A stretch of 39,341 nucleotides of DNA from an uncultured Paracoccaceae bacterium (GTDB taxonomy: Bacteria > Pseudomonadota > Alphaproteobacteria > Rhodobacterales > Rhodobacteraceae): the NCBI GenBank assembly GCA_947489705.1, contig CANLEQ010000026.1:1-39341 (forward strand), in the 5' to 3' direction. Both the position numbers and the translations under genes were made by a program. Shown here in pieces: positions 20,064-37,758 of this stretch. The notes below the pieces were generated by a model. The model was not told where the DNA came from and did no database searches. It was given only the letters and a program-made list of their open reading frames with translations. Within the stretch, counting starts at the first letter, position 1, and the number at the start of each line of letters is the position of its first letter.

Positions 20064-20358
20064 AGGCGATGGTCGATGGCATATCGCGTCTCGGGGACCC
20101 CTTTCGATCGATCTGAACGCGATGCGGATGCTGCTCCGGCGCCGGAGGACGGAAAAGCGAAGCTTCAACGTGGCGCTCGAAATCGGCGCTCTTACGGGTC
20201 CGGACCACACCAGGTATCTCGCAAGCTAGACCAGATGGCTGCGCGGCGGCAATCGAAGCGTTAGCGCCCGGCGAATCTTAATAGCGGCACGTCTTGAAGC
20301 TAAAGTTGCTGTAGGTCTTAGATTGGGATGTGATCGGGAATCACGGCGGAGTAACTTC
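20064..20358. other. Intergenic region between ctaG and zntA
   Basis: The left part has short frames only, including a basic 35-codon frame from 20122 (MRMLLRRRRTEKRSF) and an 18-codon frame overlapping the ctaG stop. Neither has a binding site or recognised content. The right part contains the zntA promoter, its operator and the ribosome binding site GGAG. Confidence 0.5.
20294..20324 (+). promoter_or_regulatory. MerR-type promoter/operator of zntA
   Basis: TTGAAG and TAGATT are separated by a 19-base spacer, CTAAAGTTGCTGTAGGTCT. The dyad CTAAAG-TTG-CTGTAG is close to CTACAG-CTA-CTGTAG in front of czcD, with the same -35 and the same spacing. Both promoters are therefore probably controlled by one MerR protein, most simply the one encoded at 9953-10381. 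Confidence 0.75.
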
Positions 20359-22647: not shown

Positions 22648-22659
22648 AAGGAAATACCC

Positions 22660-22830
22660 ATGACCTTCACCCGCCGCGCCATGATCGCCTGCGCCGCGAG
22701 CTTCGCCGTTGCCGCCCCGACTGTCGGGCTGGCACAGGACGGCCCTTCGATCCACGTCCTGAAGGACCCGAATTGCGGATGCTGCACCGCCTGGATCGAA
22801 ATCCTGCGCGAGGACAGTGAGGCGTCTTAA
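22660..22830 (+). pseudogene. DUF411 metal-binding protein gene, truncated by IS110 remnant
   Basis: The frame starts 12 bases after zntA behind AAAGGAAA. It has a signal peptide (residues 1-25, cleavage likely after GLA) and the start of a DUF411 domain: HVLKDPNCGCCTAWIEILRE, with the CGCC metal motif. DUF411 proteins are exported, copper/metal-associated and usually about 150 residues. Here the frame leaves the family after residue 53 and ends at a TAA three codons on, where the IS110 sequence begins. The interrupted rest of the gene is not present downstream. Confidence 0.85.
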
Positions 22831-23133
22831 AACGTCCGCGAAGCGCCGCGATCGGTAGGGATTGACCACCACCACCGGAAGCCCGGCCTCGTGGAGACAC
22901 GCATGGGCGATACGATGATAGCGCCCCGTCGCTTCCATCACGACCAGTTCGGGTAAGACCGTCAGGCATCGCTTCCGAAGCCGCCGGATGCCCGCCGGGT
23001 CATTGTCGACGCGGAACCGCTCCCAATGGGGATGCACGAACACATTCAGCCATCCCTTGCTCACGTCGATGCCGACGACCGAGGCGGTCGGTCGGCAGCT
23101 CTCAGGCTGCGCCTTTCCTTTTATACGGGACAT
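22825..23133 (-). pseudogene. IS110 family transposase, N-terminal fragment
   Basis: The frame starts MSRIKGKAQPESC and contains the RuvC-like DEDD start of IS110 transposases: VVGIDVSKGWLNVFVHPHWE, then PELVVMEATGRYHRIA and VVVNPYRSRRFADVLRRL. The Asp of GIDVSK and the Glu of MEATG are the first two catalytic acids. Identity to the family stops at about 22825, before the expected KTD-xx-DA motif; the frame then runs into the DUF411 sequence in antisense. About 100 of the usual 300-400 residues remain, so it cannot be active. The end marks a deletion or recombination joint. Confidence 0.87.
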
Positions 23134-23424
23134 CGTGGACTTCCCTTCATCTGTTCAGGCCCAAACCGAAGTCGGGGATCGACCCAGCTTTCCCACGGCC
23201 CTGAAAGACCCAGGGGGCGACGGTCCGATCCCCGCCCGAGGTTTTCATAGTCCGGTCCCCTCAGGGAGACGTTCCGCGGGCGGTGACGTCCTGAAGGAGA
23301 GATAAAAGCATCTGACTTAAGGTGTAAGCTCACGGCGATCGGCAGCTCGTCGCTGCGCGATCAGCCGTCGTGCTTTCCCCGGCTTATTTCGGTTCTGGCA
23401 AGTGCGCAGCGACCAGGCAGGACG
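23134..23424. other. IS110 5' non-coding end and adjoining gap
   Basis: IS110 elements carry a long non-coding region before the transposase gene, which in characterised members encodes a bridge RNA that guides recombination. This stretch is in the right place and has short complementary segments (for example around 23175-23230), but I could not fold it reliably. The element's outer boundary is not visible. No gene is supported here. Confidence 0.4.
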
Positions 23425-24246
23425 TCAGGCGGCATCGACTGTTCTGATCAGCGCGTTGATCTCTTCGGCGATGATCCGGGGGTGATCTTCCGGTGTGAAA
23501 TGCAACCCCCCTTCGATCCGCCGCAGCGGAGCGCCGAGATCTGCGGCGAGCCGCCCGGCATACGCGATCTTCTGGAATTCGTCGGCGTCCCCCCAGACGA
23601 TCCGTGCCGGGATGCCGAGCGTGGGCAGTTGATCAGCAATGGCCTTGGTATCTTCGACGTTCAGAGATTGCGCCTGTCGTACGAAAGCCTCTGCCTCGCC
23701 GTGGCGGTCGTAATGCGGCACGTGCGCGTCGTACGCCGCCTCGGCGGCGGCATCGGTCTCGTGGCCTTGCGAGAACATCAGCTTCAGGAGCTGATGGAAG
23801 GAGCCGTCGGGGGCGTGCTTCGCGATGGAGCCGGGTTTTGCGACCGCGCCGATGAGCGGCACGGGCCAGGAATCGTAGCTGATGGCATTGGTGAGAAGAA
23901 GGCCGCTGACCATCTCGGGATGCCGCACGGCCGCGATTTGCGCCACGCCCCCGCCAAGATCATGCGCGGCCAGGATCGCGCGCTCGATGCCCTGGTTGCG
24001 CATCCACGCCACGAGGTAGTCGGCCTGCGTCGCGATGGAGATGTCGCGGTCCTTCCCTTCCGGAATCGAAGCACCGTAGCCTGGCATCTCCCAGGCAAGG
24101 ACGCGCCGGCCTTCGATGAGCGGCCCGACGTCGCGCCAGAGGGCCGGGCAGGTCGGGATGCCGTGGAGCAGAATGAGCGGATCACCCGATCCAGTCTCCT
24201 CCCAACGCATGTCGATTCCGTCGACGTGGGCGGTGTGACTCTGCAT
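23425..24246 (-). CDS. Alpha/beta hydrolase with Asp nucleophile (epoxide hydrolase / dehalogenase-like)
   Basis: The 273-residue protein has an alpha/beta-hydrolase fold. The oxyanion region is LILLHGIPTCPALW, the nucleophile elbow reads AAHDLGGGVAQ with Asp96 in place of Ser, the acid is in IVWGDADEFQK and the His in GGLHFTPEDHP. An Asp nucleophile points to haloalkane or haloacetate dehalogenases and epoxide hydrolases rather than esterases. No signal peptide is present, so it is cytoplasmic. The ATG at 24246 fits the family start (QSHTAHVDGIDMRW). It stands alone between the IS110 remnant and the plasmid block. Substrate unknown. Confidence 0.87.
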   Translation of the reverse strand: MQSHTAHVDGIDMRWEETGSGDPLILLHGIPTCPALWRDVGPLIEGRRVLAWEMPGYGASIPEGKDRDISIATQADYLVAWMRNQGIERAILAAHDLGGGVAQIAAVRHPEMVSGLLLTNAISYDSWPVPLIGAVAKPGSIAKHAPDGSFHQLLKLMFSQGHETDAAAEAAYDAHVPHYDRHGEAEAFVRQAQSLNVEDTKAIADQLPTLGIPARIVWGDADEFQKIAYAGRLAADLGAPLRRIEGGLHFTPEDHPRIIAEEINALIRTVDAA

Positions 24247-24417
24247 GGCGTAGTCTTTCTTCAGGGATGCGAACTTGCTTTCAGGCCAACCCGCACTCTT
24301 CAAGGTCGTTCCTGATGGTCACGCCGGCAGTGACAAGGTTCAAGCCGAGGAATTCCCCCGACGGTCGGTTCCCCAGGAGAGATGTCCCGAGCGCTGAGAC
24401 GTCCCGCCTGAAAGGTA

Positions 24418-24466: not shown

Positions 24467-24853
24467 ATGACCCACACCGCCGAGTACGTCGCTGACGCCG
24501 CCAAGGTGGCCGCGCAGAACGACGCCTTCCGCCGCAATGCCTGCCTCGCCATACCCTTTGGGCCGGGCGATCCGGTCCTCGCGGGCCAGATCGTCACCAC
24601 CAGAGCCGTCCATGCGCTGGGTATGCCCTTCGTCCAGGGCAGTCTCGCGGCCATCGGGCGACTGACGGAGTTCCCGGCCGACAACGACCCGGACGGCTTC
24701 CACGACTTCGGCGCGGTCGAAGTCGAGGGCACAACCGTCTGGTTCAAGCTGGACCTCTTCGATGGGTCCGACCTGCAATACGGCTCCGAGGTCCCGGATG
24801 ATCCTGCCCGTACCTACCGCGTGATGACGATCCTGTTTCCCTCGGACTGGTAG
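24467..24853 (+). CDS. DUF3768 domain protein
   Basis: The 128-residue cytoplasmic protein matches DUF3768 (PF12599): an N-terminal helix (VADAAKVAAQNDAFRRNACL), then DNDPDGFHDFGAVEVEGTTV, WFKLDLFD and a C-terminal DDPARTYRVMTILFPSDW. The domain is frequent on alphaproteobacterial plasmids and integrative elements, without a known function. AAGGAGAG precedes the ATG. A strong terminator follows at 24889, so it is a single-gene unit. Confidence 0.88.
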   Translation: MTHTAEYVADAAKVAAQNDAFRRNACLAIPFGPGDPVLAGQIVTTRAVHALGMPFVQGSLAAIGRLTEFPADNDPDGFHDFGAVEVEGTTVWFKLDLFDGSDLQYGSEVPDDPARTYRVMTILFPSDW

Positions 24854-24971: not shown

Positions 24972-27101
24972 ATGACCAAGACGCCCGAGCTGACCGACAT
25001 CGAGATCGCTATCAAGGACCTGGTGCTGCACGACCTGAACGCCCGAGCAGGCTCGCCCGAGACCTACGAGGCCGACGACATCGCGAGCCTTGCCGCCTCG
25101 ATCGCCACGCTGGGCCTTCTGAACCCGCTTATCGTCCAGAAGACCGGCAAGGTCTGGGGCGTCATCGCCGGCGGTCGTCGCCGCGCGGCGCTCATGCACC
25201 TCGTGAATGACAGGCAAGCGAAGGAGTGGACCATGCGGACCAGGGTTCGGTGCCGGTCTCTGCCCGATGATACCGCCGCGGCGACCGCCATCACCGTGGC
25301 CGAGAACGTGACGCAGAAGGCGATGGACCCGCTCGACGAGTTCGAAGCGTTCGCGCGGATGATGGAGACGGGCGGCCACAGCCCCGAGAGCATCGCCGCC
25401 ATGTTCGGCGTCGAGCGACGCCGGGTCGTCGACCGCCTGCGGTTCGGTCGCATCCATCCTGACATCCGTGCGGCCGCTCGCGTCCGGGACATCACGCTCG
25501 ACGCGATGAAGGCGTTTGCCGAGCATCCCGACCAGACCGTCCAGAAGGACGTCTTCGACGCCATGCAGGGCAGCTACATGCAGGCGTGGACGATCCGCGA
25601 CAAGCTCAGGAACCGCGGCGTGAAGATGGGCGACGCGATCGCCCGGCTCGTGGCCGACGACTACCGCGCCGCGAACGGCGACATCGTGGCCGATCTCATC
25701 GAAGAAGACTCGATCCTGACCGATGAGACGCTGGTCGAACGGCTCCTGATGGAGAAGCTTCAGGCCCATGCCGAGGCCGAGCGGGCGCGGATGGGCTTCG
25801 CCTGGGCGCAGGCCATGCGCCATGTGGACTACAAGACGCTGCAAGAGTTCGGTCGTGTCTATCCCGGCGCAGTCGATCCCACCGGCGAGGCGGTCGAGCG
25901 TTGCGAGGCGATCGCCAACCGTCTCGCGGAACTCGACGAGGCGCGCGACGCCGCGATGGATGATTTCAGCGGGGATGAAGGACATCCCGATGAAGGTCTC
26001 GACCTCGCCGCAATCGACGAGGAATACGAGCAACTGAACGAGGAGTATGAGCGCCTGACGATGGGTTTCAGCGAGACCGATCTGAGCCGTGTCGGCGTGA
26101 TCGCCTATTGGGAGCGCGGGGACATCCAGACCGTCGAGGGCCTGATCCGACCCGAGGACCGGCAGGATCGCAAACCGGAGGCTGATAGGACCGGCGACGC
26201 GACTGACGCCAGTCGCGCAAGTGACGCAAGTGACGCAAGTGACGCCGATGCACTGGTCCTCGCCGACTCGCTCAAGGCCGATCTCAAGACCGAGCAGGCC
26301 GCCGTCATTGGTACTGCGCTGGCCTCCGACCCGGACCTCGCGCACGACCTGCTTCTCTTCAAGACGATTGCCGACCTCCTCGGCCGGGCAGGCACCGTCA
26401 GCTACAGCTTCGGCGTGACCGCGAGCATTGCCGATCGTCCCCATGCCAAACCCGACGAGGTGGACGGGCAGGCCGCTGCGACGCTGGCCGAGCTGTTCGA
26501 CGGTCTCGATCTGACATGGTGGGCGGACGGGAAATCCATGCCCGAACGCTTTGAGGCGTTCCGGTCCGTCGATCCGGGGATGAAATCCCGCATCGTCGCG
26601 GTGGCACTGGCCGACGCGGTGAAGCCCACCGGCTTCGGGTACAGCGAAGGGCTGATGGCGCATGTCGCCAGCCAGCTTGTGCCGGACCTGCGTGCGGTGT
26701 GGCGTCCGACCGGCGGTGCGTTCTTCGGTCGCCTGAAGAAGAGCGTCCTGCTGGGCCTCATCGCCCGCGATCTGGCTTTGCCGGAAGAGGCGGCACGACT
26801 GGCCTCGGAGAAGAAGTCCGCGATCGTCGACTTCGTTGAGTCGCTCTTCGCCGCGCCCTTCGCCACGCTTACGCCCGAGCAGCGCGAGGCGGTGGAGACG
26901 TGGTGCCCGCCCGGCATGGAGATCGAGACCAAGCGCGTCCCCTACGAGGCGTTCGGCGAGGGCAAGCTGCGCGGCATGGAGACCGACGGGGCGGACCCGG
27001 AGGACGCGACCGAGGGCGACGATGAGGCCGATGACGGCTGGACCGAGGAAGTGCCGTTCGAGGACGACGACGCCAACGAGATGGCGGCCGAGACCGCCTG
27101 A
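24972..27101 (+). CDS. Long ParB/RepB-like DNA-binding protein of the plasmid accessory block
   Basis: The 709-residue protein has a ParB N-terminal domain (residues 13-120) with LVLHDLNAR, GLLNPLIVQ and VIAGGRRRAAL at 64-74, equivalent to the nucleotide-binding GERR motif of ParB. A helix-turn-helix region follows (AENVTQKAMDPLDEFEAFA, SPESIAAMFGVERRRVVDRL, about 110-160). The long C-terminal part (160-709) has no domain I recognise and includes a linker with ASD repeats at about 416-424 and an acidic tail. No ParA partner is present, so a role in segregation is doubtful; it may act as a site-specific DNA binder for the neighbouring methylase-helicase. A terminator separates the two genes. 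Confidence 0.88.
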   Translation: MTKTPELTDIEIAIKDLVLHDLNARAGSPETYEADDIASLAASIATLGLLNPLIVQKTGKVWGVIAGGRRRAALMHLVNDRQAKEWTMRTRVRCRSLPDDTAAATAITVAENVTQKAMDPLDEFEAFARMMETGGHSPESIAAMFGVERRRVVDRLRFGRIHPDIRAAARVRDITLDAMKAFAEHPDQTVQKDVFDAMQGSYMQAWTIRDKLRNRGVKMGDAIARLVADDYRAANGDIVADLIEEDSILTDETLVERLLMEKLQAHAEAERARMGFAWAQAMRHVDYKTLQEFGRVYPGAVDPTGEAVERCEAIANRLAELDEARDAAMDDFSGDEGHPDEGLDLAAIDEEYEQLNEEYERLTMGFSETDLSRVGVIAYWERGDIQTVEGLIRPEDRQDRKPEADRTGDATDASRASDASDASDADALVLADSLKADLKTEQAAVIGTALASDPDLAHDLLLFKTIADLLGRAGTVSYSFGVTASIADRPHAKPDEVDGQAAATLAELFDGLDLTWWADGKSMPERFEAFRSVDPGMKSRIVAVALADAVKPTGFGYSEGLMAHVASQLVPDLRAVWRPTGGAFFGRLKKSVLLGLIARDLALPEEAARLASEKKSAIVDFVESLFAAPFATLTPEQREAVETWCPPGMEIETKRVPYEAFGEGKLRGMETDGADPEDATEGDDEADDGWTEEVPFEDDDANEMAAETA
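26218..26244 (+). repeat. Three tandem 9-bp repeats in the ParB-like gene
   Basis: CAAGTGACG occurs three times in a row, encoding Ala-Ser-Asp repeats. The unit length keeps the frame, so copy-number changes would only lengthen or shorten the linker between the N-terminal half and the C-terminal region. Confidence 0.8.
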
Positions 27102-27121
27102 TCCGGCCGGACACATGACGG

Positions 27122-27159
27122 AGCCGCCCCGCCCCGAAAGGGAAGGGGCGGCTTCTTTT
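27122..27159 (+). terminator. Rho-independent terminator after the ParB-like gene
   Basis: AGCCGCCCC and GGGGCGGCT form a perfect 9-bp stem with a 14-base loop, followed by TCTTTT. It lies between the ParB-like gene and the methylase-helicase gene. Confidence 0.82.
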
Positions 27160-27196
27160 CGTGGGGAACCTTGATCCCGCGAAAGGACCGATCCCC

Positions 27197-30100
27197 ATGA
27201 ACCGCCCGGCCATCGACCAACTCCTCCCCCTCCTCACCCGCGATCTGCAAACCGGCTGCCTGACGACCGCCAGCGTGGGGGCACAGATCACGCAAGCCAT
27301 CGGCGGCACCGACGCCGAAGGTGCGTGGAGCTGGCGGCAAGCCTACGACCTCGTGCAATCCGCCGCGATCCTTGCAGATCGGGACATGCCGCTTGCCGCC
27401 AACCCGAGCGACCGTCTCGCCATGCTCACGGCCGGCGCTGGCGCACGGCCGACCGAGACGCGGCGCTCGGAAGCGCAGATCAGGCTTCAGCAATTCTCGA
27501 CGCCGCTTCCCTATGCCTATGTCACGGCATTCGCCGCCGCTATCCGGCCCGGCGACGTGGCGCTGGAGCCTTCGGCCGGGACCGGGGCGCTGGCGCACAT
27601 GGTGCAATGTACCGGTGCGAAGCTGGTGTTGAACGAGATCGACCCGTTCCGCACCATGCTTCTGCAGGCGGTGTTCGACGCTCCTCTCAGCCAGCACGAC
27701 GGCGAACACATCGACGACCTGCTGGACCGCAGGCATGTCGCGGACGTGGTGGTGATGAACCCGCCCTTCTCGTCGTCGGTCTCCCGCGAAGCGGACCCGA
27801 CCATCGCGCTCCGCCACGTCGTCTCGGCCGCCAAGCGCCTCGCCCCCGGCGGGCGGCTGGTGGCGATCCTGCCGATGGCGGCCTCGGCCGATCGCCAGCC
27901 CGCGCTCTGGCGTCGCCTGACGGCGATCGTCACCCCGCGCCTGCATCTCGGCCTGCCCGGCATCGTCTACCGCAAGATGGGCACGAACGTGGAGACAGCC
28001 CTGCTCGTGGCCGACGTGACGGAGGAGCGCGGCGTGGGTGATCTCACGATTCCGCTGCGCCCTATGAGGCTTTCCGCCGCGCTGGACGTGATCCGCAGCG
28101 AGTTGCCGGATCGCCCGGCCCGTGCCGAGCGCGCGCCCGTTGTCTCCGCTGCGGCGATCCAGCCCGCGATCCGTTCCACACGCCCTGCGCCGTCCGCTCC
28201 GGTCGCGTCCCGCGCGGCCGCACGCACGCCGTCAGTCGCCCCCGTCGCCTATGTCGAGCGGACGACGCCCGGCCAGAACGCGGCCGTCTCCGACATCTAC
28301 GCGGCCTACGCGCCGCAGCGCATCGAGATCACGGGCGCGCTGCCTCACCCGACGCCGCTCGTCGAAAGCGTCGCAATGGCGGCCGTCCTTCCGCCGATGC
28401 CCACAGCGCGACCGGTCCTGCCACCGCAGCTCGTCACCCGCGGGGAGCTATCAGAGGCGCAGCTCGAAGCGATCATCATGGCGAACGATGCCCATGAGCG
28501 CGATTTGCCGGGCCGGTTCGTCGCCAACGACGAGTGGACCGAGTTGCAGCCCGCCGCCGAGGGTGAAGGCGTCGCCTTGCGCCAGGGATTCTTCATCGGG
28601 GACGGGACCGGGTGCGGCAAGGGTCGGGAAGCCGCCGGTATCATCATGTCCGGCTGGCTTCAAAATCGAACCCGTTCCGTATGGCTGTCGAAGTCCAAGA
28701 CCCTGATCGAGGACGCGATCCGCGACTGGACCGATCTCGGCGGCTCGCCTACCGACATCCACTCGATCGACCGCTGGACGCCCGACGAGACGATCATGCT
28801 GGGGCGGGGCATCATCTTCATGACATACGCCACGCTGCGCTCCGTGGGCAAAACCGGGCGCACGCGGCTGGAGCAGCTCGTCGAATGGGCGGGCGCGGAC
28901 TTCGAGGGCGTCATCGCCTTCGACGAGGCCCATGCGATGCAGAACGCGGCCGGATCGAGCGAAGGTCGTGGCACGGCTCCGTCCCAGCAAGGCATCGCGG
29001 GCCTGCGGCTCCAGATCGCCCTGCCCCGCGCCCGTATCCTCTACATCTCGGCGACCGGGGCCACGAACGTCTCGAACCTCGCCTATGCCGTGCGGCTCGG
29101 CCTCTGGGGTCCGGGCGACGCCTACCCGTTCACGACGCGCGAGGATTTCGTGGCGGCGATGGAGGCCGGTGGCGTGGCGGCGATGGAAGTGGTCGCCCGC
29201 GACCTCAAGGCGCTCGGCCTCTACACGGCCCGCGCCCTGTCGTTCGATGGCGTCGAGTACGACATTCTCGAACACCGGCTCTCGGACGACGAGCGCCGCG
29301 TCTACGACGCCTTCGCCTCGGCCTTCAAAATCATCCATCAGAACCTGCGCGCAGCCCTCGAAGCGACTGGCATCGTGGACGCGGAATCCGGCACGACCGC
29401 CTCCGCCGCAAAGGCATCGGCCCTGTCACGGTTCGAGTCGATGAAGCAGCGGTTCTTTGGCCATGTCCTGAACGGCTTCAAGGCGAAGAGCATCATCGAC
29501 GCGATCGAGGCGGACCTCGCCGATGGCTGGGCTCCTGTCGTGCAGATCGTCTCCACGGGGGAAAGCCATCTCGACCGAGCCATCGAAGGGCTTGAGGCCG
29601 GCGACGATCTGACGGAGGCGCACCTGACGCCGAAAGAGGTCGTGGTGCACTGGCTGGAAACGGCGTTCCCCATCGAGGCGCAGCAGCTCGTCGAGATCGA
29701 GGGCACCACCGTCAGCCAGCCGCTTCTCGATGGGAGCGGCAACCGCGTTGTTTCGCGCGAGGCCGAGGCACTGCGCGATGCGGCGTTGATGGAACTCTAC
29801 ACCATCGCGCCGATCCCGTCGGTGCTGGACCAGCTTGTCTGGCACTTCGGCGAAGAGCGCCTGGCGGAAGTCACGGGTCGCTCGAAGCGCACGATCCGCA
29901 CCGGTGGCGGCAAGCTGAAGGTCGTGCCACGCTCAGGCTCAGCGAATACAGCCGAGTCTGCCGCGTTCATGTCGGGCGCCAAGGACGTGCTGCTCTTCAG
30001 CGATGCGGGCGGCACCGGGCGCTCCTACCACGCGGCGCTCAAGGCGGCGAACCAGCGCCGTCGTCGCCACTACCTCGTCGAGCCGGGCTGGCGCGCGGAT

Positions 30101-31411
30101 GCGGCGATCCAGGGGCTCGGCCGTACGCACCGGTCTGCGCAAGCCTGCGCGCCGTGGTTCCGCGTCGTGACCAGCGACGTTCACGGCGAGAAGCGGTTCA
30201 CCAGCACGATTGCCCGCCGTCTCGACACGCTCGGCGCGCTCACCCGCGGCCAGCGCCAGACCGGGAGCCAGAACATGTTCCGCGCGTCGGACAATCTCGA
30301 AAGCCCGATCGCCCGCCGCGCGCTCGTCTCGCACTACAAGGAGCTGGTCTCCGACGCCTGCGAGGCGATGACCTACGAGACGTTCGAGGACTGGACCGCG
30401 CTGAAGCTCATCGGCGGCGATGGCGTTCTGCTGGACGATCTGCCGCCGATCCAGCGGTATCTGAACCGCCTTCTGGCACTGCCGATCCAGATGCAGAACG
30501 ACCTCTTCGGCGCGTTCACCCGGAAGATCGAAGCGCAGACCGAGGCGGCCCGGGTTGCCGGCACGCTCGACATCGGCATCGAGACGCTCCGGGCCGACCG
30601 CATTTCTGTTGTCGATGAGGAGACCATCTGGACCTGCCCCAAGAGCGGATCGGTGACACGCACCGTGACGCTGGAAACCGAAACGGCGGTGCAGATCACC
30701 TCGGGCGACGACATCCTGTCGTTCTACGGCCGATACGACCGGCCGATGCGGAACGCCGCCTCGGGCAAGGCCGCCCTGATCTCGAAGCGTCCATCGCAAA
30801 TCTACGACGACGAGGCGTTTGCCGAGGTGCGTGATGTCCGCCGCCCTGGCGGGAGAACCACCGTGACCGAAGAGGCGTTCGCCTCGTCCCACTGGGAACG
30901 CATCGACGACGAGGCATTCGTTGCTCTCTGGGACGCCGAAGCCGACGCGCTTCCGAAGGTCGAGACCGAGATCGTTGTCCTGCTGACCGGCCTGCTGCTG
31001 CCGATCTGGAAGATGATCCCCTCGAACAGCCAGCGCATCTGGCGGGTGACGCCCGAAGACGACATCTCCCGCATCGGACGGGCCATCTCGCCCGATGAAG
31101 CCCTGGTTCTGAAGGGCCGGTTCCGAGGCGACGGGGCCGCCGCGCCCGACGAGCTGATCGCCGCGGCAATGACGGGCGACAAAGCCGTGGATCTCGGACG
31201 CGGCCTGAGCTTGCGCGCCCGCCGCGTCGCGGGGTCCAAGCGGCTCGAACTGGAGGGCTGGGCACCCTCCCAGGTGCCGGCGCTGAAGGCTGCGGGCTGC
31301 TTTTCGGAGATCATCGCCCACCAGCTCCGGGTATTCGTTCCGGTGGGCGATGGAGCGAAGGAGATCATCGCCCGGATCGGCGGGGGTCACGCGGAGGCAA
31401 GCGCGGGGTGA
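27197..31411 (+). CDS. Strawberry-notch-type helicase fused to an N-terminal DNA methylase
   Basis: This 1404-residue protein begins with a class I methyltransferase domain: SAM motif VALEPSAGTGAL (124-130) and catalytic NPPF (188-191), the pattern of adenine-N6 DNA methylases. A Pro/Ala-rich linker (about 300-400) leads to a superfamily 2 helicase of the strawberry notch family. It has Walker A GDGTGCGKGR (468-477), DEAH (576-579), the YISATGAT motif, FSDAGGTGRSYHA and motif VI QGLGRTHRSAQ (972-982). The C-terminal 400 residues have no recognised domain. Start: ATG behind GAAAGGACCGA. Family members on mobile elements are proposed to modify or remodel DNA, but their role is unproven. It forms a block with the ParB-like and DUF736 genes. 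Confidence 0.92.
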   Translation: MNRPAIDQLLPLLTRDLQTGCLTTASVGAQITQAIGGTDAEGAWSWRQAYDLVQSAAILADRDMPLAANPSDRLAMLTAGAGARPTETRRSEAQIRLQQFSTPLPYAYVTAFAAAIRPGDVALEPSAGTGALAHMVQCTGAKLVLNEIDPFRTMLLQAVFDAPLSQHDGEHIDDLLDRRHVADVVVMNPPFSSSVSREADPTIALRHVVSAAKRLAPGGRLVAILPMAASADRQPALWRRLTAIVTPRLHLGLPGIVYRKMGTNVETALLVADVTEERGVGDLTIPLRPMRLSAALDVIRSELPDRPARAERAPVVSAAAIQPAIRSTRPAPSAPVASRAAARTPSVAPVAYVERTTPGQNAAVSDIYAAYAPQRIEITGALPHPTPLVESVAMAAVLPPMPTARPVLPPQLVTRGELSEAQLEAIIMANDAHERDLPGRFVANDEWTELQPAAEGEGVALRQGFFIGDGTGCGKGREAAGIIMSGWLQNRTRSVWLSKSKTLIEDAIRDWTDLGGSPTDIHSIDRWTPDETIMLGRGIIFMTYATLRSVGKTGRTRLEQLVEWAGADFEGVIAFDEAHAMQNAAGSSEGRGTAPSQQGIAGLRLQIALPRARILYISATGATNVSNLAYAVRLGLWGPGDAYPFTTREDFVAAMEAGGVAAMEVVARDLKALGLYTARALSFDGVEYDILEHRLSDDERRVYDAFASAFKIIHQNLRAALEATGIVDAESGTTASAAKASALSRFESMKQRFFGHVLNGFKAKSIIDAIEADLADGWAPVVQIVSTGESHLDRAIEGLEAGDDLTEAHLTPKEVVVHWLETAFPIEAQQLVEIEGTTVSQPLLDGSGNRVVSREAEALRDAALMELYTIAPIPSVLDQLVWHFGEERLAEVTGRSKRTIRTGGGKLKVVPRSGSANTAESAAFMSGAKDVLLFSDAGGTGRSYHAALKAANQRRRRHYLVEPGWRADAAIQGLGRTHRSAQACAPWFRVVTSDVHGEKRFTSTIARRLDTLGALTRGQRQTGSQNMFRASDNLESPIARRALVSHYKELVSDACEAMTYETFEDWTALKLIGGDGVLLDDLPPIQRYLNRLLALPIQMQNDLFGAFTRKIEAQTEAARVAGTLDIGIETLRADRISVVDEETIWTCPKSGSVTRTVTLETETAVQITSGDDILSFYGRYDRPMRNAASGKAALISKRPSQIYDDEAFAEVRDVRRPGGRTTVTEEAFASSHWERIDDEAFVALWDAEADALPKVETEIVVLLTGLLLPIWKMIPSNSQRIWRVTPEDDISRIGRAISPDEALVLKGRFRGDGAAAPDELIAAAMTGDKAVDLGRGLSLRARRVAGSKRLELEGWAPSQVPALKAAGCFSEIIAHQLRVFVPVGDGAKEIIARIGGGHAEASAG

Positions 31412-31440
31412 GGCGGCAGGCGTCGGCGCTAGAGAGGGGA

Positions 31441-31458
31441 AAAGGCGGCTTCGCCTTT
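31441..31458. repeat. Short hairpin before the DUF736 gene
   Basis: AAAGGCG and CGCCTTT form a perfect 7-bp stem with loop GCTT, 28 bases after the end of the methylase-helicase gene. No T-run follows, so it may be a weak terminator or a leader structure like that at 24418-24432. Confidence 0.5.
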
Positions 31459-31506
31459 GGTGATCCGATCCGGATCGGGAAAGCAATCCAGCCAAGGAGC
31501 ACGACA

Positions 31507-32196
31507 ATGATCACCGGAACCCTGACCCAGAACGCCGACGCCCGCACCTTCACCGCCAGCATCTCCACGATGATGTTCGACATCGCGCGGATCGCGGTCG
31601 TGGCGAACGCCTACAAGACCGCCGACAACCATCCCGACTTCCATCTCGAGGTCCGCACCCCGCGCGGCCGTACCATGCGCGTGGGCTCGATGTGGAAGGC
31701 CGTCAGCGAGAAGAGCGGTCGCAGCTACTTCTCGCTCGCGATCACCGACAGGATGGGCCGGACGTGGCGCATGAACGCGGTTCGCAATGACGAGACGCCC
31801 GAGGGGACGTGGCAGATCGTGCCCATGACCGGCGGCAAGACCGAACAGATCGCGATGACCGGCAAGATCGAGACGCTCGACGACGACAATCTCGCGGGGT
31901 TCATTGGTGGCTACGACTTCGACATGGATTTCACGGCCGTCGAGTCCCCGACCAAGACCGATCCGAACCACCCGGATTACCACATCGAGGCGCGCAGCCC
32001 GGCGGGTGTCCTGATCCGGATGGGCTCGATCTGGAAGGCAAAGAGCGAGCGCACGGGGACCGAGTACCTGTCGATCGCCTTCTCGTCGCCGCGCGGCACG
32101 CAGCATCGCGCAAACGCCTTCCGCCGCGAGGATGGGGAGCCCGGCGAGTACGAGATCGTCGCTCTCACCGGGCCGGACCTCGCCGTCGTCGCCTGA
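31507..32196 (+). CDS. Tandem DUF736 protein
   Basis: The 229-residue protein consists of two related parts. Each has the DUF736-type sequence NHPDFHLEVRTPRG followed by MRVGSMWKAVSEKSGRSYFS, and NHPDYHIEARSPAG followed by IRMGSIWKAKSERTGTEYLS. Single-domain DUF736 proteins are about 100 residues and are nearly universal on alphaproteobacterial plasmids and integrative elements. A duplicated version is less usual. The function is unknown; the all-beta character and neighbours suggest DNA or protein binding. AAGGAG precedes the ATG and a strong terminator follows. Confidence 0.9.
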   Translation: MITGTLTQNADARTFTASISTMMFDIARIAVVANAYKTADNHPDFHLEVRTPRGRTMRVGSMWKAVSEKSGRSYFSLAITDRMGRTWRMNAVRNDETPEGTWQIVPMTGGKTEQIAMTGKIETLDDDNLAGFIGGYDFDMDFTAVESPTKTDPNHPDYHIEARSPAGVLIRMGSIWKAKSERTGTEYLSIAFSSPRGTQHRANAFRREDGEPGEYEIVALTGPDLAVVA

Positions 32197-32220
32197 TCCA
32201 TCTCCGGAGCCGAAAACCAA

Positions 32221-32252
32221 GGGCCGCACCCCGCGACGGGTGCGGCCCTTTT
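32221..32252 (+). terminator. Rho-independent terminator after the DUF736 gene
   Basis: GGGCCGCACCC and GGGTGCGGCCC form a perfect 11-bp stem with a 6-base loop, followed by TTTT. Confidence 0.85.
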
Positions 32253-32289
32253 CGTGCGCGATCCCACCCCGCTCGGAAAGGACCGACGC

Positions 32290-32628
32290 ATGACGACTTC
32301 GATAGAAGACACACCCGCGATCGACAGGGAGGCCGTGGCGCGTGATGCGCTCGCGACCGTCGCCCGCCGGATGCAGCTCACTCCGGCCCAGATCGAAAAC
32401 GCCCTCGCGCTCTCCGCGTGGACGACCATCGACGAGATGATCCAGCGTGAGTTCATGGGCCCCTACCGTGGCTACTTTCCGAAATGCGGCATGGCGATCC
32501 GCAGCGAGGCGGTCATCGCCGAGATCTTCGACCAGATCGCGATCGCTCTCGACGATCCGCGCCGCGCGATGCGGTGCGGTGTCTGGACCCCGCCGGGCGG
32601 CTGGACCGGAGGCGCACACAATGGGTGA
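32290..32628 (+). CDS. Hypothetical protein, first of an overlapping gene chain
   Basis: The 112-residue product has a helical N-terminal half (IDREAVARDALATVARRMQL, TPAQIENALALSAWTTIDEMI) and GYFPKCGMAIRSEAVIAEIF. No named family is recognised. The ATG follows GGAAAGGACCGA, the same leader as before the methylase-helicase gene. It overlaps the next gene by eight bases. All genes from here to the PAPS-reductase-like gene are likely one transcript. Confidence 0.75.
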   Translation: MTTSIEDTPAIDREAVARDALATVARRMQLTPAQIENALALSAWTTIDEMIQREFMGPYRGYFPKCGMAIRSEAVIAEIFDQIAIALDDPRRAMRCGVWTPPGGWTGGAHNG

Positions 32629-33043
32629 AGGTCTTTACTGGAGCCGTGATGGCCGCACCGCCTACACCGAGCCCTACGACGACGATCTTGATCCCGAGGA
32701 TGTCGATCTCTGGACATGGGCCTACGACGATCTCGTCGCGACCGTCCGCGCGTCTCTCAGCGCCGCCTGGTGGCCGGTCGCGCAGGAATGGCGGGAGCGA
32801 TCGAGCCGCATCGTCGCCCGCAATGGCCTCCATGAAGTCTGGCTGACCGGCGACAGCTACGGCCGCGTCCATGTTACCTTCGGCGTCCGGCAGCACATCG
32901 ACGAGACCGATGCGCTGGCACGGCACAGCCTCGATGCCCGCGCCGAGGCGTTCTTCGACGCGCTCGGCCAAGTCTATCCGCTGCGCGTCCGGACAAGCGC
33001 CTGGACCAGCGCCCCACGCGAGACGCGGAGGGTTGCGGCATGA
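32621..33043 (+). CDS. Hypothetical protein, 140 residues
   Basis: The product begins MGEGLYWSRDGRTAY and is rich in acidic and aromatic residues (DDDLDPEDVDLWTWAYDDL). A later part (GRVHVTFGVRQHIDETDALARHSLDARAEAFFDAL) looks folded. No signal peptide, membrane helix or known motif is seen. It overlaps both neighbours (eight bases upstream, ATGA downstream), which supports the start and suggests coupled translation. Confidence 0.75.
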   Translation: MGEGLYWSRDGRTAYTEPYDDDLDPEDVDLWTWAYDDLVATVRASLSAAWWPVAQEWRERSSRIVARNGLHEVWLTGDSYGRVHVTFGVRQHIDETDALARHSLDARAEAFFDALGQVYPLRVRTSAWTSAPRETRRVAA

Positions 33044-33282
33044 CGCATCGCATCACTCTGCAATCGAAGCCGTCGCCGCATTTCCATGAGCGGCACAAAC
33101 GCTGGCAGGTCTTCTTGAACGGCGAGCCGTGGGGCGATCCGTTCTACTACAACATGCGCGGCTTTCGCGGCGTCCTGCCCCTGCCCGGCGGTCAGGCATT
33201 CGACCCCGGCGAGCTGAGCCTGACGCGGCTCAGGCAGGAGGTCGCGCAGATCAACCGCGAAGCGCGCGAGGCGGGGGCATGA
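33040..33282 (+). CDS. Hypothetical protein, 80 residues
   Basis: A small basic protein starting MTHRITLQSKPSPHFHERHK, followed by WQVFLNGEPWGDPFYYNMRG and a C-terminal helix (LRQEVAQINREAREA). I do not recognise a family. It overlaps both neighbours by four bases (ATGA), the regular pattern of this chain. Confidence 0.72.
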   Translation: MTHRITLQSKPSPHFHERHKRWQVFLNGEPWGDPFYYNMRGFRGVLPLPGGQAFDPGELSLTRLRQEVAQINREAREAGA

Positions 33283-33506
33283 GCGCGCCCGCTTCGATCC
33301 TTGGCCATTGGTACGCCACCGGCCCCGCGGACAAGCCGTTCACGGCGGGCGATCCCGACTGGAACATCCACCGCATCGTCGAGGACACGCCGGGCCTGCC
33401 GGATGTGCTCGTCGAGAACGCCGGCGGTCAGCGGTTCCTGCTGGCCCGCGAGATCGCCACGGCGATCGCCCTCCCTCCCTCCGACCTCGAAAGGCCGATC
33501 CCATGA
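33279..33506 (+). CDS. Hypothetical protein, 75 residues
   Basis: The product contains LGHWYATGPADKPFTAGDPD and VEDTPGLPDVLVENAGGQRF, a pattern of short strands suggesting a small beta-rich fold. No known domain is recognised. ATGA overlaps on both sides set the start and support it as a gene despite its size. Confidence 0.7.
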   Translation: MSAPASILGHWYATGPADKPFTAGDPDWNIHRIVEDTPGLPDVLVENAGGQRFLLAREIATAIALPPSDLERPIP

Positions 33507-33979
33507 AGATCGAACTCAAGGCCATCCAGTACGCCGCATTTTCGTCCGAGGAGACCAACTGCTACACCGCCAATCTCTACGTCGACGGCCGCAAGATCGG
33601 CACGGTCGGCAATGAGGGGCATGGCGGTCCGGATCACTTTCACGGCGACCATGCGGCCTTCGCGGCGGCCGACGAATGGTGCAAGGCCAACCTGCCCAAG
33701 TGGACCGGCCACGACGGCACGCCGCGCGACACCGATCTGGAGTTTCATTGCGGCCAGCTCGTCGATGACTGGCTCGTGGCCCGCGACCTGAAGACCGCGC
33801 TGCGGACCAAGGTCGTGATGCGCGATCCCGCAGATGGGTGCCTTTACGAAGTGAAACACCGCAAGCAGGTGGAGGCCACGATCGCGGGCGTTCTCAGGCA
33901 GCATCCCGGTGCTGTGATCCTGAACACCCTGCCCTTCGACGAGGCACTGACGCTCTATCGCGCAGCACCCTCGCCATGA
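33503..33979 (+). CDS. Hypothetical protein, 158 residues
   Basis: The product has segments IELKAIQYAAFSSEETNCY, VDGRKIGTVGNEGHGGPDHF and a C-terminal part with DGCLYEVKHRKQVEATIAGV. The His-rich GHGGPDHFHGDH (about 39-50) could bind metal. Proteins of this kind sit beside PAPS-reductase-like genes on other alphaproteobacterial elements as far as I can recall, but no function is assigned. Coupled to both neighbours by ATGA. Confidence 0.75.
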   Translation: MKIELKAIQYAAFSSEETNCYTANLYVDGRKIGTVGNEGHGGPDHFHGDHAAFAAADEWCKANLPKWTGHDGTPRDTDLEFHCGQLVDDWLVARDLKTALRTKVVMRDPADGCLYEVKHRKQVEATIAGVLRQHPGAVILNTLPFDEALTLYRAAPSP

Positions 33980-34653
33980 CGGAGGCGATCCCCCCGCAGA
34001 TCGCGGAGATGATCGACGCCGGTGCGCTCTTTGCCGTCAGCCATTCCGGGGGCAAGGACTCGCAGGCCCAAATGATCCGGCTTCGGTCCATCGTGCCCCC
34101 CGACCAGCTCGTCGTCGTCCACGCGCCCCTCGGGCGCGTGGAATGGCCCAGCACCCTCGCCCACATCCGCGCGACCATCGGAGAGACGCCCCTGATCCTC
34201 GCCCCGGCACGCACGGACCTTCTGGCGATGGTCCGGCGGCGGCGCACATGGCCGACGCCCGCGATCCGGCAATGCACCTCGGACCTGAAGCGCGGCCCGA
34301 TCGAGCGCGAGCTGCGTCGCTATCTCAAGGCCAACCCGCGCCTCAGTGGCCGCGTCGTGTCCTGCATGGGGCTGCGCGCCGATGAAAGCCCGAACCGTGC
34401 CAAGCGACCTGCGCTCAAGTTCTCCGAACGAAACAGCAAGGCCGGACGAGAATGGTGGGAGTGGCTGCCAATTCATCACTGGTCGAAGGCGCGCGTCTTC
34501 GCGGAGATCGCCGCCGCCGGCGAGAGACCGCACTGGGTCTATGCCAAGGGCATGAGCCGCTGCTCCTGTTCGTTTTGCATCATGGCCACGCGGGAAGAAC
34601 TCCGACGCGCGGCGCGTCCGCCCCCGCCTTGCCGCCGAGTATATCGCGCTTGA
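33976..34653 (+). CDS. PAPS-reductase-like PP-loop protein with a C-terminal frameshift
   Basis: The protein has the PP-loop SHSGGKDSQ (residues 22-30) of the PAPS reductase / ATP pyrophosphatase superfamily. Further features are IRQCTSDLKRGPIERELRR, CMGLRADESPNRA, IHHWSKARVFAEIAAAGERP and a cysteine cluster SRCSCSFCIMAT that could hold an iron-sulfur centre. Plasmid and phage members are not sulfate reductases; relatives such as DndC act in DNA modification. At about 34612-34630 the frame shifts: it ends at 34653 as PPPPCRRVYRA, while another frame continues the usual tail (AAEYIALEEEIGHTLSPSR) to a TGA at 34718-34720. The tail is therefore lost or the sequence has an indel error. Confidence 0.82.
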   Translation: MTEAIPPQIAEMIDAGALFAVSHSGGKDSQAQMIRLRSIVPPDQLVVVHAPLGRVEWPSTLAHIRATIGETPLILAPARTDLLAMVRRRRTWPTPAIRQCTSDLKRGPIERELRRYLKANPRLSGRVVSCMGLRADESPNRAKRPALKFSERNSKAGREWWEWLPIHHWSKARVFAEIAAAGERPHWVYAKGMSRCSCSFCIMATREELRRAARPPPPCRRVYRA

Positions 34654-34758
34654 GGAGGAGATCGGCCATACGCTCAGTCCGTCCCGTATTCCGCTGCGAG
34701 AAATCGTCGATATGTCGTGAAAATCGGCCCGGCACATCGGAAACGGATCGACAGGAGA

Positions 34759-34809: not shown

Positions 34810-35355
34810 ATGCTACAGATGATCGACAAGGATACCGGCCTGACGATGAGCATGGCCGTGCAGACGAAACCACAGAACCCCCGCGCGGCCGAGAACAACA
34901 TCTTCCAGTTCGTGACATGGACCAAGGGTCTGGGCGACACACATCGCTGGCGCAGCCACGACGATTTCCTGTCCGTCATCAAGACGCAGGATCACCTGAT
35001 CTACCGGCTCCGGAAGGGGGAGAGATCGCGGCGCGCGACGCTCGCCATTCTCCATGACAACGAAGCCCCCACGATCGGCTACGCCTTCGCCCACTACGAC
35101 CTTCTGCGTCTGGAGTTCGACGTGCCGGGCGACATCGGCCCCGAAGAGGTCAAGCGCGCCCTCGATCTGCTGATGGTGGAGCTGCTGACCTATGAGGAAT
35201 ACATCGCCGGTCAGGTCTACAGCTTCGCGATCACCGACAAGGCCGGGACCGTGCTGGATACTCAGGACAACATCTATGGCGAGGATTACGCCGAGCATCT
35301 CGCTCGCAAAGCCTTCGACATTCACCGCCTCGGGATCGGAGCCCACGGCTCCTGA
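34810..35355 (+). CDS. Hypothetical protein, 181 residues
   Basis: The cytoplasmic product contains NNIFQFVTWTKGLGDTHRWR, LRKGERSRRATLAILHDNEA, a VPGDIGPEEVKRALDLLMVE helix and DNIYGEDYAEHLARKAFDIH. No known motif is recognised. In-frame ATGs at 34819 and 34846 are alternatives to the chosen start. It has its own inverted repeat upstream and terminator downstream, so it is probably an independent unit. Confidence 0.7.
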   Translation: MLQMIDKDTGLTMSMAVQTKPQNPRAAENNIFQFVTWTKGLGDTHRWRSHDDFLSVIKTQDHLIYRLRKGERSRRATLAILHDNEAPTIGYAFAHYDLLRLEFDVPGDIGPEEVKRALDLLMVELLTYEEYIAGQVYSFAITDKAGTVLDTQDNIYGEDYAEHLARKAFDIHRLGIGAHGS

Positions 35356-35505: not shown

Positions 35506-35874
35506 ATGCCCTGGAGTGTCATGAACATCCACGAGGCGGCGGTCAGGTTTCATCTGCAAGCCGATTTCGTCGAGTCCAATGCCGACATCCTCGTCCTCGT
35601 GGAAGATCCCGACAACAGCGTGTGGTACGCGGCTTGCCGGGTCGGAGATAGCGTCTGCGGTTTCGTCATCTATTCCGACGTTGCCCTCCGAGACAGAGAC
35701 CTCTGCATGGTGAAGATCGTCCTGGAAGACGAAGGCCCCGACGCTATCGGAGCGCCGCTGGAAGTCCTCGAGCAGCTTTCGCCGACATCAGATCCCGTCG
35801 CAAACGAATGGCGCACCGCCTGCTATCGTACTGCACTCGGCGTTTGCACGATCATCGCGTATTCTGCTCATTGA
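35506..35874 (+). CDS. Hypothetical protein, 122 residues
   Basis: The product alternates strands and turns (ILVLVEDPDNSVWYAACRVG, VCGFVIYSDVALRD, CMVKIVLEDEGPDAIGAPLE), giving an alpha/beta look, with several cysteines. No family is recognised. AAGGA nine bases before supports the ATG at 35506; an ATG at 35521 is also possible. It is convergent with the next gene and overlaps it by seven bases. Confidence 0.6.
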   Translation: MPWSVMNIHEAAVRFHLQADFVESNADILVLVEDPDNSVWYAACRVGDSVCGFVIYSDVALRDRDLCMVKIVLEDEGPDAIGAPLEVLEQLSPTSDPVANEWRTACYRTALGVCTIIAYSAH

Positions 35875-36416: not shown

Positions 36417-36679
36417 CAGACATAAGGAACGGATTGGCACCTCCCGCCCGGCTGACGCCGGCCGGGACCGCCGCCCTACTCGGCCCCCCTGCGGCGGGCC
36501 TCCCCGAGCCCTGACCCCCTGCCCTCCTGTCACTTCCAGCTAATCTTGCAAACGAGTGAGCGCGGAACCCCGTGAACCGCTACCCTCCAACCGAACGATC
36601 CTACAGCAATAGGTGCAAACGCTTACAGGGATTGGTGCGAACAGGTTCGAGGATCACAGCTCTTGATGCTAGCGGGTTA

Positions 36680-36855: not shown

Positions 36856-37746
36856 ATGGAGGAGAAGACCACCCCGCTTCGCAAGCGGATGATCGAGGAC
36901 ATGAACATCCGCGGAATGGGCGACAAAGCCCAGAAGGCCCATATCCGGGCGATCAAGGATTTCGCCGGGTTTCTCGGGCGATCTCCCGACACGGCCACCC
37001 CGGAGGAGCTTCGCGCCTACCAGCTCCACATGACGGAGACCGGGGTCACGCCGCCGACCTTCAACGCGCGCATCATGGCGCTTCGGTTCCTCTTCGGCAC
37101 CACGTGCAAGAAGGAGGAGATGCACACCCACATGCAGTTCCGCCGCCAGCCCCGGCGGCTGCCCGTCGTGCTGAGCATGGGAGATGTATCCGAGATCCTG
37201 GCAGCAGCGCCGGGCCCGGGGCTGAAGTATCGTGCGGCGCTCAGCATCTCCTACGGGGCCGGATTGCGGGCCTCGGAGGTCTGCAATCTCAAGGTCGGCG
37301 ACATCGACAGCGCTCGGATGCTGATCCATGTCGAGCAGGGCAAGGGGCGCAAGGATCGGAAGGTCATGCTGGCGCCCGGCCTCCTCGCGCTTCTCAGGGC
37401 GTACTGGCGCGAGGCCCGTCCCGCGGGCTGGCTGTTCCCGGGCAAGCCGAAGATCAACCCGATCTCGGCGCGACAGCTGAGCCGCGCCTTCCTGACCGCC
37501 AAGCAGTTGGCAGGCATCACCGGGCCCTCCACGCTGCATACCCTGCGCCACAGCTTCGCCACGCACCTCTTGGAGGCCAACACCGACATCCGGGTGATCC
37601 AGGTTCTGCTCGGCCATGCCAAGGTCACCACGACCCAGCAATACGCCCATGTCGCGACCAGGACGATCCGCGATATCGTCAGCCCGTTCGAGGCGCTGGC
37701 CGGGATCGCGGGACAGGTCGCCCCCCCGAGGCCGGGACCGGAGTAG
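36856..37746 (+). CDS. Tyrosine recombinase of the IS91-type element
   Basis: The 296-residue protein has an N-terminal SAM-like core-binding domain (residues 10-95) and a tyrosine recombinase catalytic domain. The active-site residues are Arg138 (GAGLRASEVCNL), Lys163 (EQGKGRKDRKV), His228 and Arg231 (LHTLRHSFATH), His254 (LLGHAKVTTTQQYAHV) and the nucleophile Tyr263. The full RKHRHY set suggests activity. GGAGG precedes the ATG. The transposase gene begins 12 bases after its stop, so they are cotranscribed. Its job may be resolving intermediates. Confidence 0.92.
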   Translation: MEEKTTPLRKRMIEDMNIRGMGDKAQKAHIRAIKDFAGFLGRSPDTATPEELRAYQLHMTETGVTPPTFNARIMALRFLFGTTCKKEEMHTHMQFRRQPRRLPVVLSMGDVSEILAAAPGPGLKYRAALSISYGAGLRASEVCNLKVGDIDSARMLIHVEQGKGRKDRKVMLAPGLLALLRAYWREARPAGWLFPGKPKINPISARQLSRAFLTAKQLAGITGPSTLHTLRHSFATHLLEANTDIRVIQVLLGHAKVTTTQQYAHVATRTIRDIVSPFEALAGIAGQVAPPRPGPE

Positions 37747-37758
37747 ACCGCGCCGGGG

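What the first reader, a model, noticed from the sequence alone, without database searches (positions are those of the whole stretch)
24972..34720. ParB-like / methylase-helicase / DUF736 / PP-loop block as a possible undescribed DNA-modification or anti-defence system
A ParB-type DNA binder without ParA, a 1404-residue fusion of an adenine-type methylase and a strawberry-notch helicase, tandem DUF736, and a chain of coupled unknown genes ending in a PAPS-reductase-like protein with a Cys cluster lie in one direction. PP-loop proteins of this type act in DNA phosphorothioation, and methylase-helicase fusions occur in defence and anti-restriction. The combination suggests a system that marks or protects plasmid DNA, perhaps on entry into a new host.
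Basis: inference. Interest (0 to 1): 0.8.

Follow-up and report, generated by a model that had tools for sequence, protein, structure and literature searches.

The report
Leading-region entry module of alphaproteobacterial plasmids
This gene block is the part of a conjugative plasmid that probably enters a new bacterial cell first and shields the incoming DNA from that cell's defences; its sulfur-enzyme-like gene is an optional extra, not the core of a new marking system.

Summary
The genes are real. The methylase-Strawberry-notch helicase has relatives on 683 plasmid records (411 over most of its length); ParB, DUF736 and DUF3768 keep its company. Where a relaxase gene lies in the same fetched stretch, the block lies on its 5' side and points at it in 11 of 12 elements. 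In the four elements with a recognisable VirD2-type nick site, transfer would run away from the relaxase towards module genes, which the transferred strand templates; in two of the four only one module gene or fragment was seen there. The ParB is homologous to the F leading-region ParB (25% over 607 aa). Best reading: a leading-region establishment and anti-restriction module with a DarB-like methylase-helicase. The PP-loop ("PAPS reductase") gene is accessory: in 3 of 149 family genomes, cleanly absent from a 96-98% identical sister copy, broken in others, yet present in such modules at different positions. Nothing was tested at the bench.

The parts
24467..24853 (+). DUF3768 protein (128 aa), first gene of the module still present in the window
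   Evidence: Pfam DUF3768 E 3.8e-24; lies just 5' of ParB in most relatives
24972..27101 (+). Long ParB-type DNA-binding protein (709 aa), F leading-region ParB type
   Evidence: HTH_ParB E 9e-6; 25% identity over 607 aligned residues, pairwise E 4e-25, to the F-plasmid leading-region ParB
27197..31411 (+). Adenine-type methylase fused to Strawberry-notch SF2 helicase (1404 aa)
   Evidence: AAA_34 E 1.7e-114, Helicase_C_4 E 1.3e-90, MTS E 1.1e-4 below cut-off; motifs intact; methylase half matches phage proteins, some annotated DarB-like antirestriction
31507..32196 (+). Protein with two DUF736 domains (229 aa); all-beta in a low-confidence model
   Evidence: DUF736 E 1.3e-19, two stretches; model pLDDT 50.6; on the same contig as the methylase-helicase in 18 of 21 places
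32290..32628 (+). Small conserved gene g4 (112 aa), no family found
   Evidence: 54-66% identical in relatives
32621..33043 (+). Small conserved gene g5 (140 aa)
   Evidence: overlaps g4 by 8 bases; 46-97% identical in relatives
33040..33282 (+). Small gene g6 (80 aa)
   Evidence: 4-base overlap; relatives
33279..33506 (+). Small gene g7 (75 aa)
   Evidence: 4-base overlap; relatives
33503..33979 (+). Small gene g8 (158 aa), partial match to phage family phrog_17767
   Evidence: phrog_17767 E 8e-11 over residues 72-154; 97% identical in the sister block C29
33976..34653 (+). PP-loop protein, annotated as PAPS reductase family in relatives (225 aa): accessory gene; C-terminus departs from relatives as if out of frame
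   Evidence: PAPS_reduct E 2.9e-11; phrog_424 E 2.6e-33; BrxP E 3.6e-14, SspD E 4.1e-8; PP-loop fold; absent from sister copy C29
34810..35355 (+). Small gene g10 (181 aa) downstream of the accessory gene
   Evidence: 97% identical in C29, 34-36% in other relatives
35506..35874 (+). Small gene g11 (122 aa)
   Evidence: 68% and 89% identical pieces in C29

Best explanation
The block is the leading-region (establishment) module of an alphaproteobacterial conjugative plasmid. On conjugation the transferred strand enters from oriT and carries these genes into the recipient before the relaxase gene. Their coding direction makes the incoming strand their template, so they can be expressed early. ArdC (not found in the window, present in most relatives) binds and shields single-stranded DNA; the ParB-type protein and perhaps DUF736 act on the incoming DNA; the methylase-translocase moves along the plasmid and methylates adenines so that host type I or similar restriction does not cut it, as is proposed for DarB of phage P1. 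The PP-loop enzyme is an optional add-on. Shown here: gene content, conserved order, position and direction relative to relaxase genes and to the nick sites that could be recognised, ParB homology, accessory status of the PP-loop gene. Inferred: early expression, methylation, anti-restriction effect, DUF736 role, and that the window's own plasmid has the same layout as its relatives.
For: Block on the 5' side of the relaxase gene and pointing at it in 11 of 12 elements (C29, G009, G049, G081, G086, G076, G035, G048 and M317; pAt; pP73B; against: pP51_d). VirD2-type oriT: the 13-mer ATATATCCTGCCA occurs three times in the 4.34-Mb genome (reversed control 0) and once in G048, each between virC1-like and virD1-like genes and directly after a short hairpin (z -3.96, -3.99, -3.91, -2.17). 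The strand sends transfer to the side that bears module genes in 4 of 4: DUF736 to DUF2493 in C29 (the rest on C60, inferred to adjoin), all but DUF736 in G048, DUF2493 alone in C23, an ArdC piece in C67. Nick consensus with upstream inverted repeat: PMC3772185 passages. ParB homologous to the F leading-region ParB, which stands in the order methylase, antirestriction, SSB, ParB, psiB, traM. ArdC of M317 = ArdcN + MPTase-PolyVal. ParB on the contig of the methylase-helicase in 35 of 45, same strand 35 of 35, upstream 33 of 35. Precedents: ArdC (PMC7213743 abstract), strand-specific plasmid methylase acting early in conjugation (PMC7736820 abstract), leading-region anti-defence islands (PMC11541004 passages and one section), DarB dyad (PMC5512222 section 14).
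Against: The window's own contig holds no relaxase hit and no such nick site; position is read from sister copies and relatives. In pP51_d the relaxase lies on the other side; in M317 and G048 about 25-40 kb of other DNA lies between module and relaxase. For the second relaxase type (seven elements plus M317) no nick site could be recognised; bare 8-base matches in five of the seven lie on the opposite strand and at face value would point the other way. [quoted passage not shown] The virC1-like gene on the leading side runs the other way. Deleting parB2 of pED208 had no detected effect on transfer or SOS (PMC8406263 passages). The elements are related, so counts are not independent. No methylation or transfer data; the Pfam score of the methylase half is under its cut-off.
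Confidence: 0.72

Rival explanations
1. A DNA-phosphorothioation-like or other sulfur-based marking system in which the PP-loop protein is the key enzyme and ParB, methylase-helicase and DUF736 are partners.
For: PP-loop protein matches BrxP (E 3.6e-14), SspD (4.1e-8) and DndC (4e-4) profiles; such enzymes work in phosphorothioation (PMC12839542 passages); cysteines 100, 130, 198 and 201 are invariant in 8 sequences; recurrent presence in the module.
Against: Rare (3 of 149); absent from a 96-98% identical sister block; interrupted in C47 and M317 and off-frame at the window's 3' end; no Dnd or Ssp partner among ten of the twelve block proteins; found without the module on unrelated plasmids and in phages.
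Confidence: 0.06
2. A stability or partition backbone: ParB and neighbours help segregation or replication and have nothing to do with entry.
For: ParB annotation; conserved backbone position; RepABC or RepC genes lie near the block in some plasmids.
Against: No ParA gene is annotated next to this ParB; plasmids carry RepA/RepB or a ParA elsewhere; the homologous F protein lies in the leading region apart from SopA and its partner; ArdC and the methylase-helicase have no known partition role.
Confidence: 0.11
3. A resident defence island: the methylase-helicase is part of a restriction-like system that attacks phages or rival plasmids.
For: Methylase-helicase couplings occur in R-M systems (PMC5512222); mad2 profile match (2.4e-10); M317 carries SAVED and Shedu genes 5' of the module.
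Against: No restriction-nuclease family among the proteins scanned (ParB-superfamily domains may nick DNA, so this is not complete); fixed place and direction relative to the relaxase; ArdC is anti-restriction.
Confidence: 0.08

Closest known systems
F-plasmid leading region (methylase, antirestriction, SSB, ParB, psiB)
   Same: Homologous long ParB; methylase gene; genes in one direction, towards traM
   Different: No psiB or SSB seen in the window block (an SSB gene is annotated in the two sphingomonad versions); methylase fused to a Strawberry-notch helicase; ArdC, DUF736, DUF3768, DUF2493 instead
DarB-type DNA methylase-helicase dyad (PMC5512222)
   Same: Adenine-type methylase followed by an SNF2-clade ATPase in one protein on a mobile element; methylase half matches phage DarB-like proteins
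   Different: Strawberry-notch helicase family; plasmid-encoded near relaxase genes rather than packaged in a virion; LPD36 domain not tested
ArdC of R388 (PMC7213743)
   Same: ArdcN plus metallopeptidase architecture in the M317 module gene
   Different: No match in the window; only C-terminal pieces on C60 and C76
BrxP, SspD and DndC PP-loop enzymes; phage PAPS-reductase-like family phrog_424
   Same: PP-loop with SGGKDS and a cysteine cluster; best family match phrog_424 (E 2.6e-33)
   Different: No partner genes found in the block; accessory; no DUF4007 fusion, which is frequent in BrxP (PMC12839542 passages)
ICEMlSym-type rhizobial ICEs with DUF736 (PMC8627217)
   Same: DUF736 genes reported on all elements of that kind, often in duplicate
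   Different: The one passage seen does not speak of a leading region or of ParB and helicase

Membership tests
Plasmid leading region (sense of PMC11541004) | Lies on the side of oriT opposite the relaxase gene | tested here: met
   4 of 4 elements with a recognised VirD2-type nick site carry module genes there, C23 only DUF2493 and C67 only an ArdC piece; unresolved for the second relaxase type; not readable for the window contig itself
Plasmid leading region (sense of PMC11541004) | Genes templated by the transferred strand | tested here: met
   Module genes point towards oriT in C29, C23, C67 and G048; the virC1-like gene does not
Plasmid leading region (sense of PMC11541004) | Early expression in the recipient | not testable with these tools
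   needs transcript data
DarB-like methylase-helicase dyad | Adenine-type MTase with NPP(Y/F) motif N-terminal to an SNF2-clade ATPase | tested here: met
   NPPF at 27758, Walker A at 28598, DEAH at 28922; AAA_34 and Helicase_C_4; MTase Pfam score just under cut-off
DarB-like methylase-helicase dyad | Protects DNA from type I restriction | not testable with these tools
   bench assay
F leading-region ParB family | Homology beyond the ParB and HTH domains, into the C-terminal part | tested here: met
   607-column alignment, pairwise E 4e-25; 9-sequence alignment
Dnd/Ssp/BREX-4 phosphorothioation system | PP-loop enzyme together with DndD/E or SspB/C partners | tested here: not met
   no such partner among ten of twelve block proteins; elsewhere in the genome not settled: the DndE search was uninformative because its controls were silent
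CysH PAPS reductase | PP-loop fold like CysH | tested here: met
   1sur, TM-score 0.59, E 4.6e-7
CysH PAPS reductase | C-terminal catalytic Cys motif ECGLH (recalled) | tested here: not met
   not seen by eye in eight aligned sequences; the window copy is off-frame there

The most novel reading that the evidence does not exclude
The orphan PP-loop enzyme is an undescribed anti-defence factor of leading regions: it chemically marks the incoming strand (for example by thiolation) without Dnd or Ssp partners, as a plug-in recruited at different positions of the same entry module (after g8, next to ArdC, some way after DUF736) and also carried by phages, once inside a 1982-codon open frame that looks like a polyvalent protein.
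Probability: 0.12. Interest if true: 0.8.

Novelty: new variant of a known kind. Interest (0 to 1): 0.5.

Why it matters
Relatives of this methylase-helicase lie on 683 plasmid records, most of the ten commonest genera being alphaproteobacterial, under names such as 'strawberry notch' and 'ParB partition protein' that hide the likely role. Recognising the module as a leading region gives testable functions for DUF736, DUF3768, DUF2493 and the small genes, candidate anti-restriction genes in marine and soil bacteria, and shows the F-type entry strategy (ParB, methylase, ssDNA-binding protein) in another class with a different methylase. The sister pair with and without the PP-loop gene is a natural test of that gene's role.

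Tried and rejected
DUF736 as an SSB-like fold: weak hint only (phrog_7364 E 0.0078); profile search of solved structures gave three matches at E 0.88-0.99; the model was too poor for a fold search (pLDDT 50.6), so left open. Close viral relatives of DUF736 and of the methylase-helicase: none by back-translated scans of IMG/VR; distant matches, mostly to the methylase half, in 14 phage records. PP-loop protein as ordinary CysH: fold fits but the C-terminal motif (recalled) was not seen. DndE search of the genome: controls silent, so uninformative. Nick site in the second relaxase type: 8-base matches on the opposite strand in five of seven elements, none in two, a conserved inverted repeat whose cleavage side is unclear; M317's match is on the expected strand but lies in an iterated array and is not counted. 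pAt: an 8-base MOBQ-like match on the expected strand (core recalled), not counted. A ParB-PAPS pair like IbrAB: considered from memory, a paper search gave nothing useful.
Full report
What is there. The block is real and lies in one direction. Gene starts were set by eye from relatives and overlaps: DUF3768 24467-24853, ParB 24972-27101, methylase-helicase 27197-31411, double-DUF736 31507-32196, g4 to g8 32290-33979, PP-loop 33976-34653, g10 34810-35355, g11 35506-35874. Genes g4 to the PP-loop gene overlap by 8 or 4 bases; the other gaps are 93-156 bases. Pfam gives HTH_ParB and a sub-threshold ParB_N, AAA_34 and Helicase_C_4 (Strawberry-notch family) with a sub-threshold methylase domain, DUF736 in two stretches, and PAPS_reduct; DUF3768. 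The methylase and helicase motifs looked for are intact.

Copies in the same genome. The genome (4.34 Mb, 156 contigs) holds three versions: the window (C26), C60 plus C29, and C76 plus C47. The last two are each split by contig ends; that the halves belong together is inferred from gene order and identity. Ka/Ks is 0.16-0.33 for ParB, methylase-helicase, DUF736 and the PP-loop core, and 0.05-0.29 for g5 and g8; g10 is at 0.08 against C29 and 0.57-0.61 against more distant relatives.

The PP-loop gene is separable. In C29 the 179 and 212 bases compared on either side of the PP-loop gene are 96% and 98% identical to the window, but 709 bases (33980-34688) are replaced by 12. In C47 the gene is interrupted, in plasmid M317 it has two in-frame stops, and in the window its last part departs from relatives as if out of frame. 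Among 149 genomes of the family it is found in 3 (E 1e-12), against 40 for ParB (E 1e-20), 14 for DUF736 (E 1e-8) and 28 for the helicase part (E 1e-40). In all three it lies with module genes on the same contig. It is also linked to the methylase-helicase on M317, Salipiger pTPRO5, sphingomonad CP099618 and Erythrobacteraceae WH01K, in three of the four named contigs, and by coordinates on the Paracoccus, Sagittula and Sulfitobacter alexandrii plasmids. It is not linked in the fourth named contig (Saccharopolyspora), in four IMG/VR contigs, or in the stretches read on Bosea, P. aeruginosa, Xanthomonas, Polaromonas and Achromobacter plasmids, though in Achromobacter an N6 methylase gene is next to it; Phaeobacter piscinae is unclear because the gene lies at the start of a record marked linear. 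So it is an accessory that recurs in this module at different positions. Its best family match is phage phrog_424 and, in the defence library, BrxP and SspD; its predicted fold (pLDDT 79.7) is closest to CysH, with TtuA and LarE among the next.

The core travels together. In the family survey 45 contigs carry the helicase part; 35 of them also carry a ParB match, always on the same strand and upstream in 33; 18 of 21 DUF736 places are on such a contig. Of the ten contigs without ParB, three have the helicase match at a contig edge (C47, G072:C20, G138:C19). Across plasmid records the methylase-helicase has 683 matches at E 1e-5, 411 of them over at least 80% of its length, from Rhodobacterales, Rhizobiales and Sphingomonadales to Nostoc.

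Position and direction. In nine contigs or plasmids with module and relaxase the order is ArdC, DUF3768, ParB, methylase-helicase, DUF736, DUF2493, relaxase, all in one direction. Exceptions in detail: C29 begins at DUF736 and its coupling-protein gene runs the other way; G048 has no DUF736 match. Celeribacter pP73B and Agrobacterium pAt (with DUF2493 before DUF736) agree; Phaeobacter pP51_d does not, its MobQ gene lying 5' of the module. That is 11 of 12, over three relaxase types for the 11. Of eight family contigs fetched almost whole, out of 45, seven had a relaxase match and one (G083) had none by my queries and a different gene order; they were chosen from the best ParB, DUF736 and PP-loop hits, so the count is a sample. 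Other plasmid stretches read list no relaxase; the gene tables of that collection are incomplete.

Transfer origin. Between the virC1-like and virD1-like genes of C29 and G048 lies ATATATCCTGCCA, once per contig and not in the other eleven sequences searched, directly after hairpins of 9 and 10 pairs (z -3.96 and -3.99). In the whole own genome it occurs three times, none for the reversed control; the other two, on C23 and C67, have the same neighbours and hairpins of 8 and 9 pairs (z -3.91 and -2.17; for C67, 7 of 200 shuffles fold as well, and its lowest-energy fold has further pairs). The nick consensus (C/T)ATCCTG(C/T) of the MOBP family with an adjacent inverted repeat is described in PMC3772185 (passages); that the 5' end made by the nick leads the transferred strand is established knowledge of relaxases. 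The nick strand sends transfer away from the relaxase gene: towards DUF2493 and the module in C29 and G048, towards a DUF2493 gene 97.7% identical over residues 21-320 in C23, and towards an ArdC fragment in C67. All these genes are templated by the transferred strand; the virC1-like gene is not. This is the leading-region layout of PMC11541004 (passages and one section), where the relaxase lies in the lagging region; that paper saw no enrichment for three MOB types, and the MOB subtype here was not determined. For the second relaxase type the site is unresolved.

Homology to known entry genes. The ParB aligns over 607 columns with the F-plasmid ParB that sits between ssb and psiB in the F leading region. 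A pED208 ParB2, in an ssb-parB2-psiB-psiA cluster, is translocated to recipients, although its deletion had no detected effect on transfer or SOS (PMC8406263 passages). ArdC is an anti-restriction ssDNA-binding protein required in the recipient (PMC7213743 abstract). Plasmid methylase M.EcoGIX appears to act on the entering strand early in transfer (PMC7736820 abstract). The methylase-helicase dyad, including Strawberry-notch forms and their coupling to adenine methylases on plasmids, is described and proposed to protect invading DNA in PMC5512222 (section 14 read in full; other passages).

Verdict. A leading-region establishment module, the alphaproteobacterial variant of a known kind. I found no paper in the held library that describes this gene set as a leading region (listings; none of the 16 papers held DUF2493 or DUF3768), but subscription papers and supplements were not searched and most listed papers were not opened.

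Noticed in passing
L021:6519-12464 (IMG/VR contig): A 1982-codon open frame holds a PP-loop domain like the window's among other segments, resembling phage polyvalent proteins; 'PAPS', 'PP-loop' and 'phosphoadenosine' have no occurrence in PMC5512222.
   Followed up: partly
window 36856-38955: A tyrosine recombinase and an IS91-like transposase-type gene (named by eye from the translations) lie 3' of the block near the end of the contig; DUF2493 and a relaxase gave no match on it.
   Followed up: no
window 20323-24303: A metal P-type ATPase, a truncated IS110-like transposase and an alpha/beta hydrolase on the minus strand (named by eye) lie where ArdC stands in relatives; ArdC gave no match in the window.
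   Followed up: partly
L025:13320-13380, L049:3660-3725, L100:7510-7570, L101:2672-2735: Four VirD2-type oriT sites share the 13-base nick motif while the hairpin stem before it varies in sequence with its pairing kept.
   Followed up: partly
seven elements, upstream of the second relaxase type: A highly conserved stretch upstream of the virD1-like open frame with an inverted repeat (GATTTGGC..GCCAAATC), a likely oriT whose cleavage side is unknown.
   Followed up: partly
window 36435-36527; C47 (L013) 8200-8287 and 13156-13244: A roughly 90-base sequence repeated at 81-83% identity on two contigs of the genome.
   Followed up: no
NC_014642 162562-164458 (L023:14962-16858): On Achromobacter pA82 the PP-loop gene lies directly after an N-6 DNA methylase gene, with no Strawberry-notch gene in the stretch read.
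   Followed up: no
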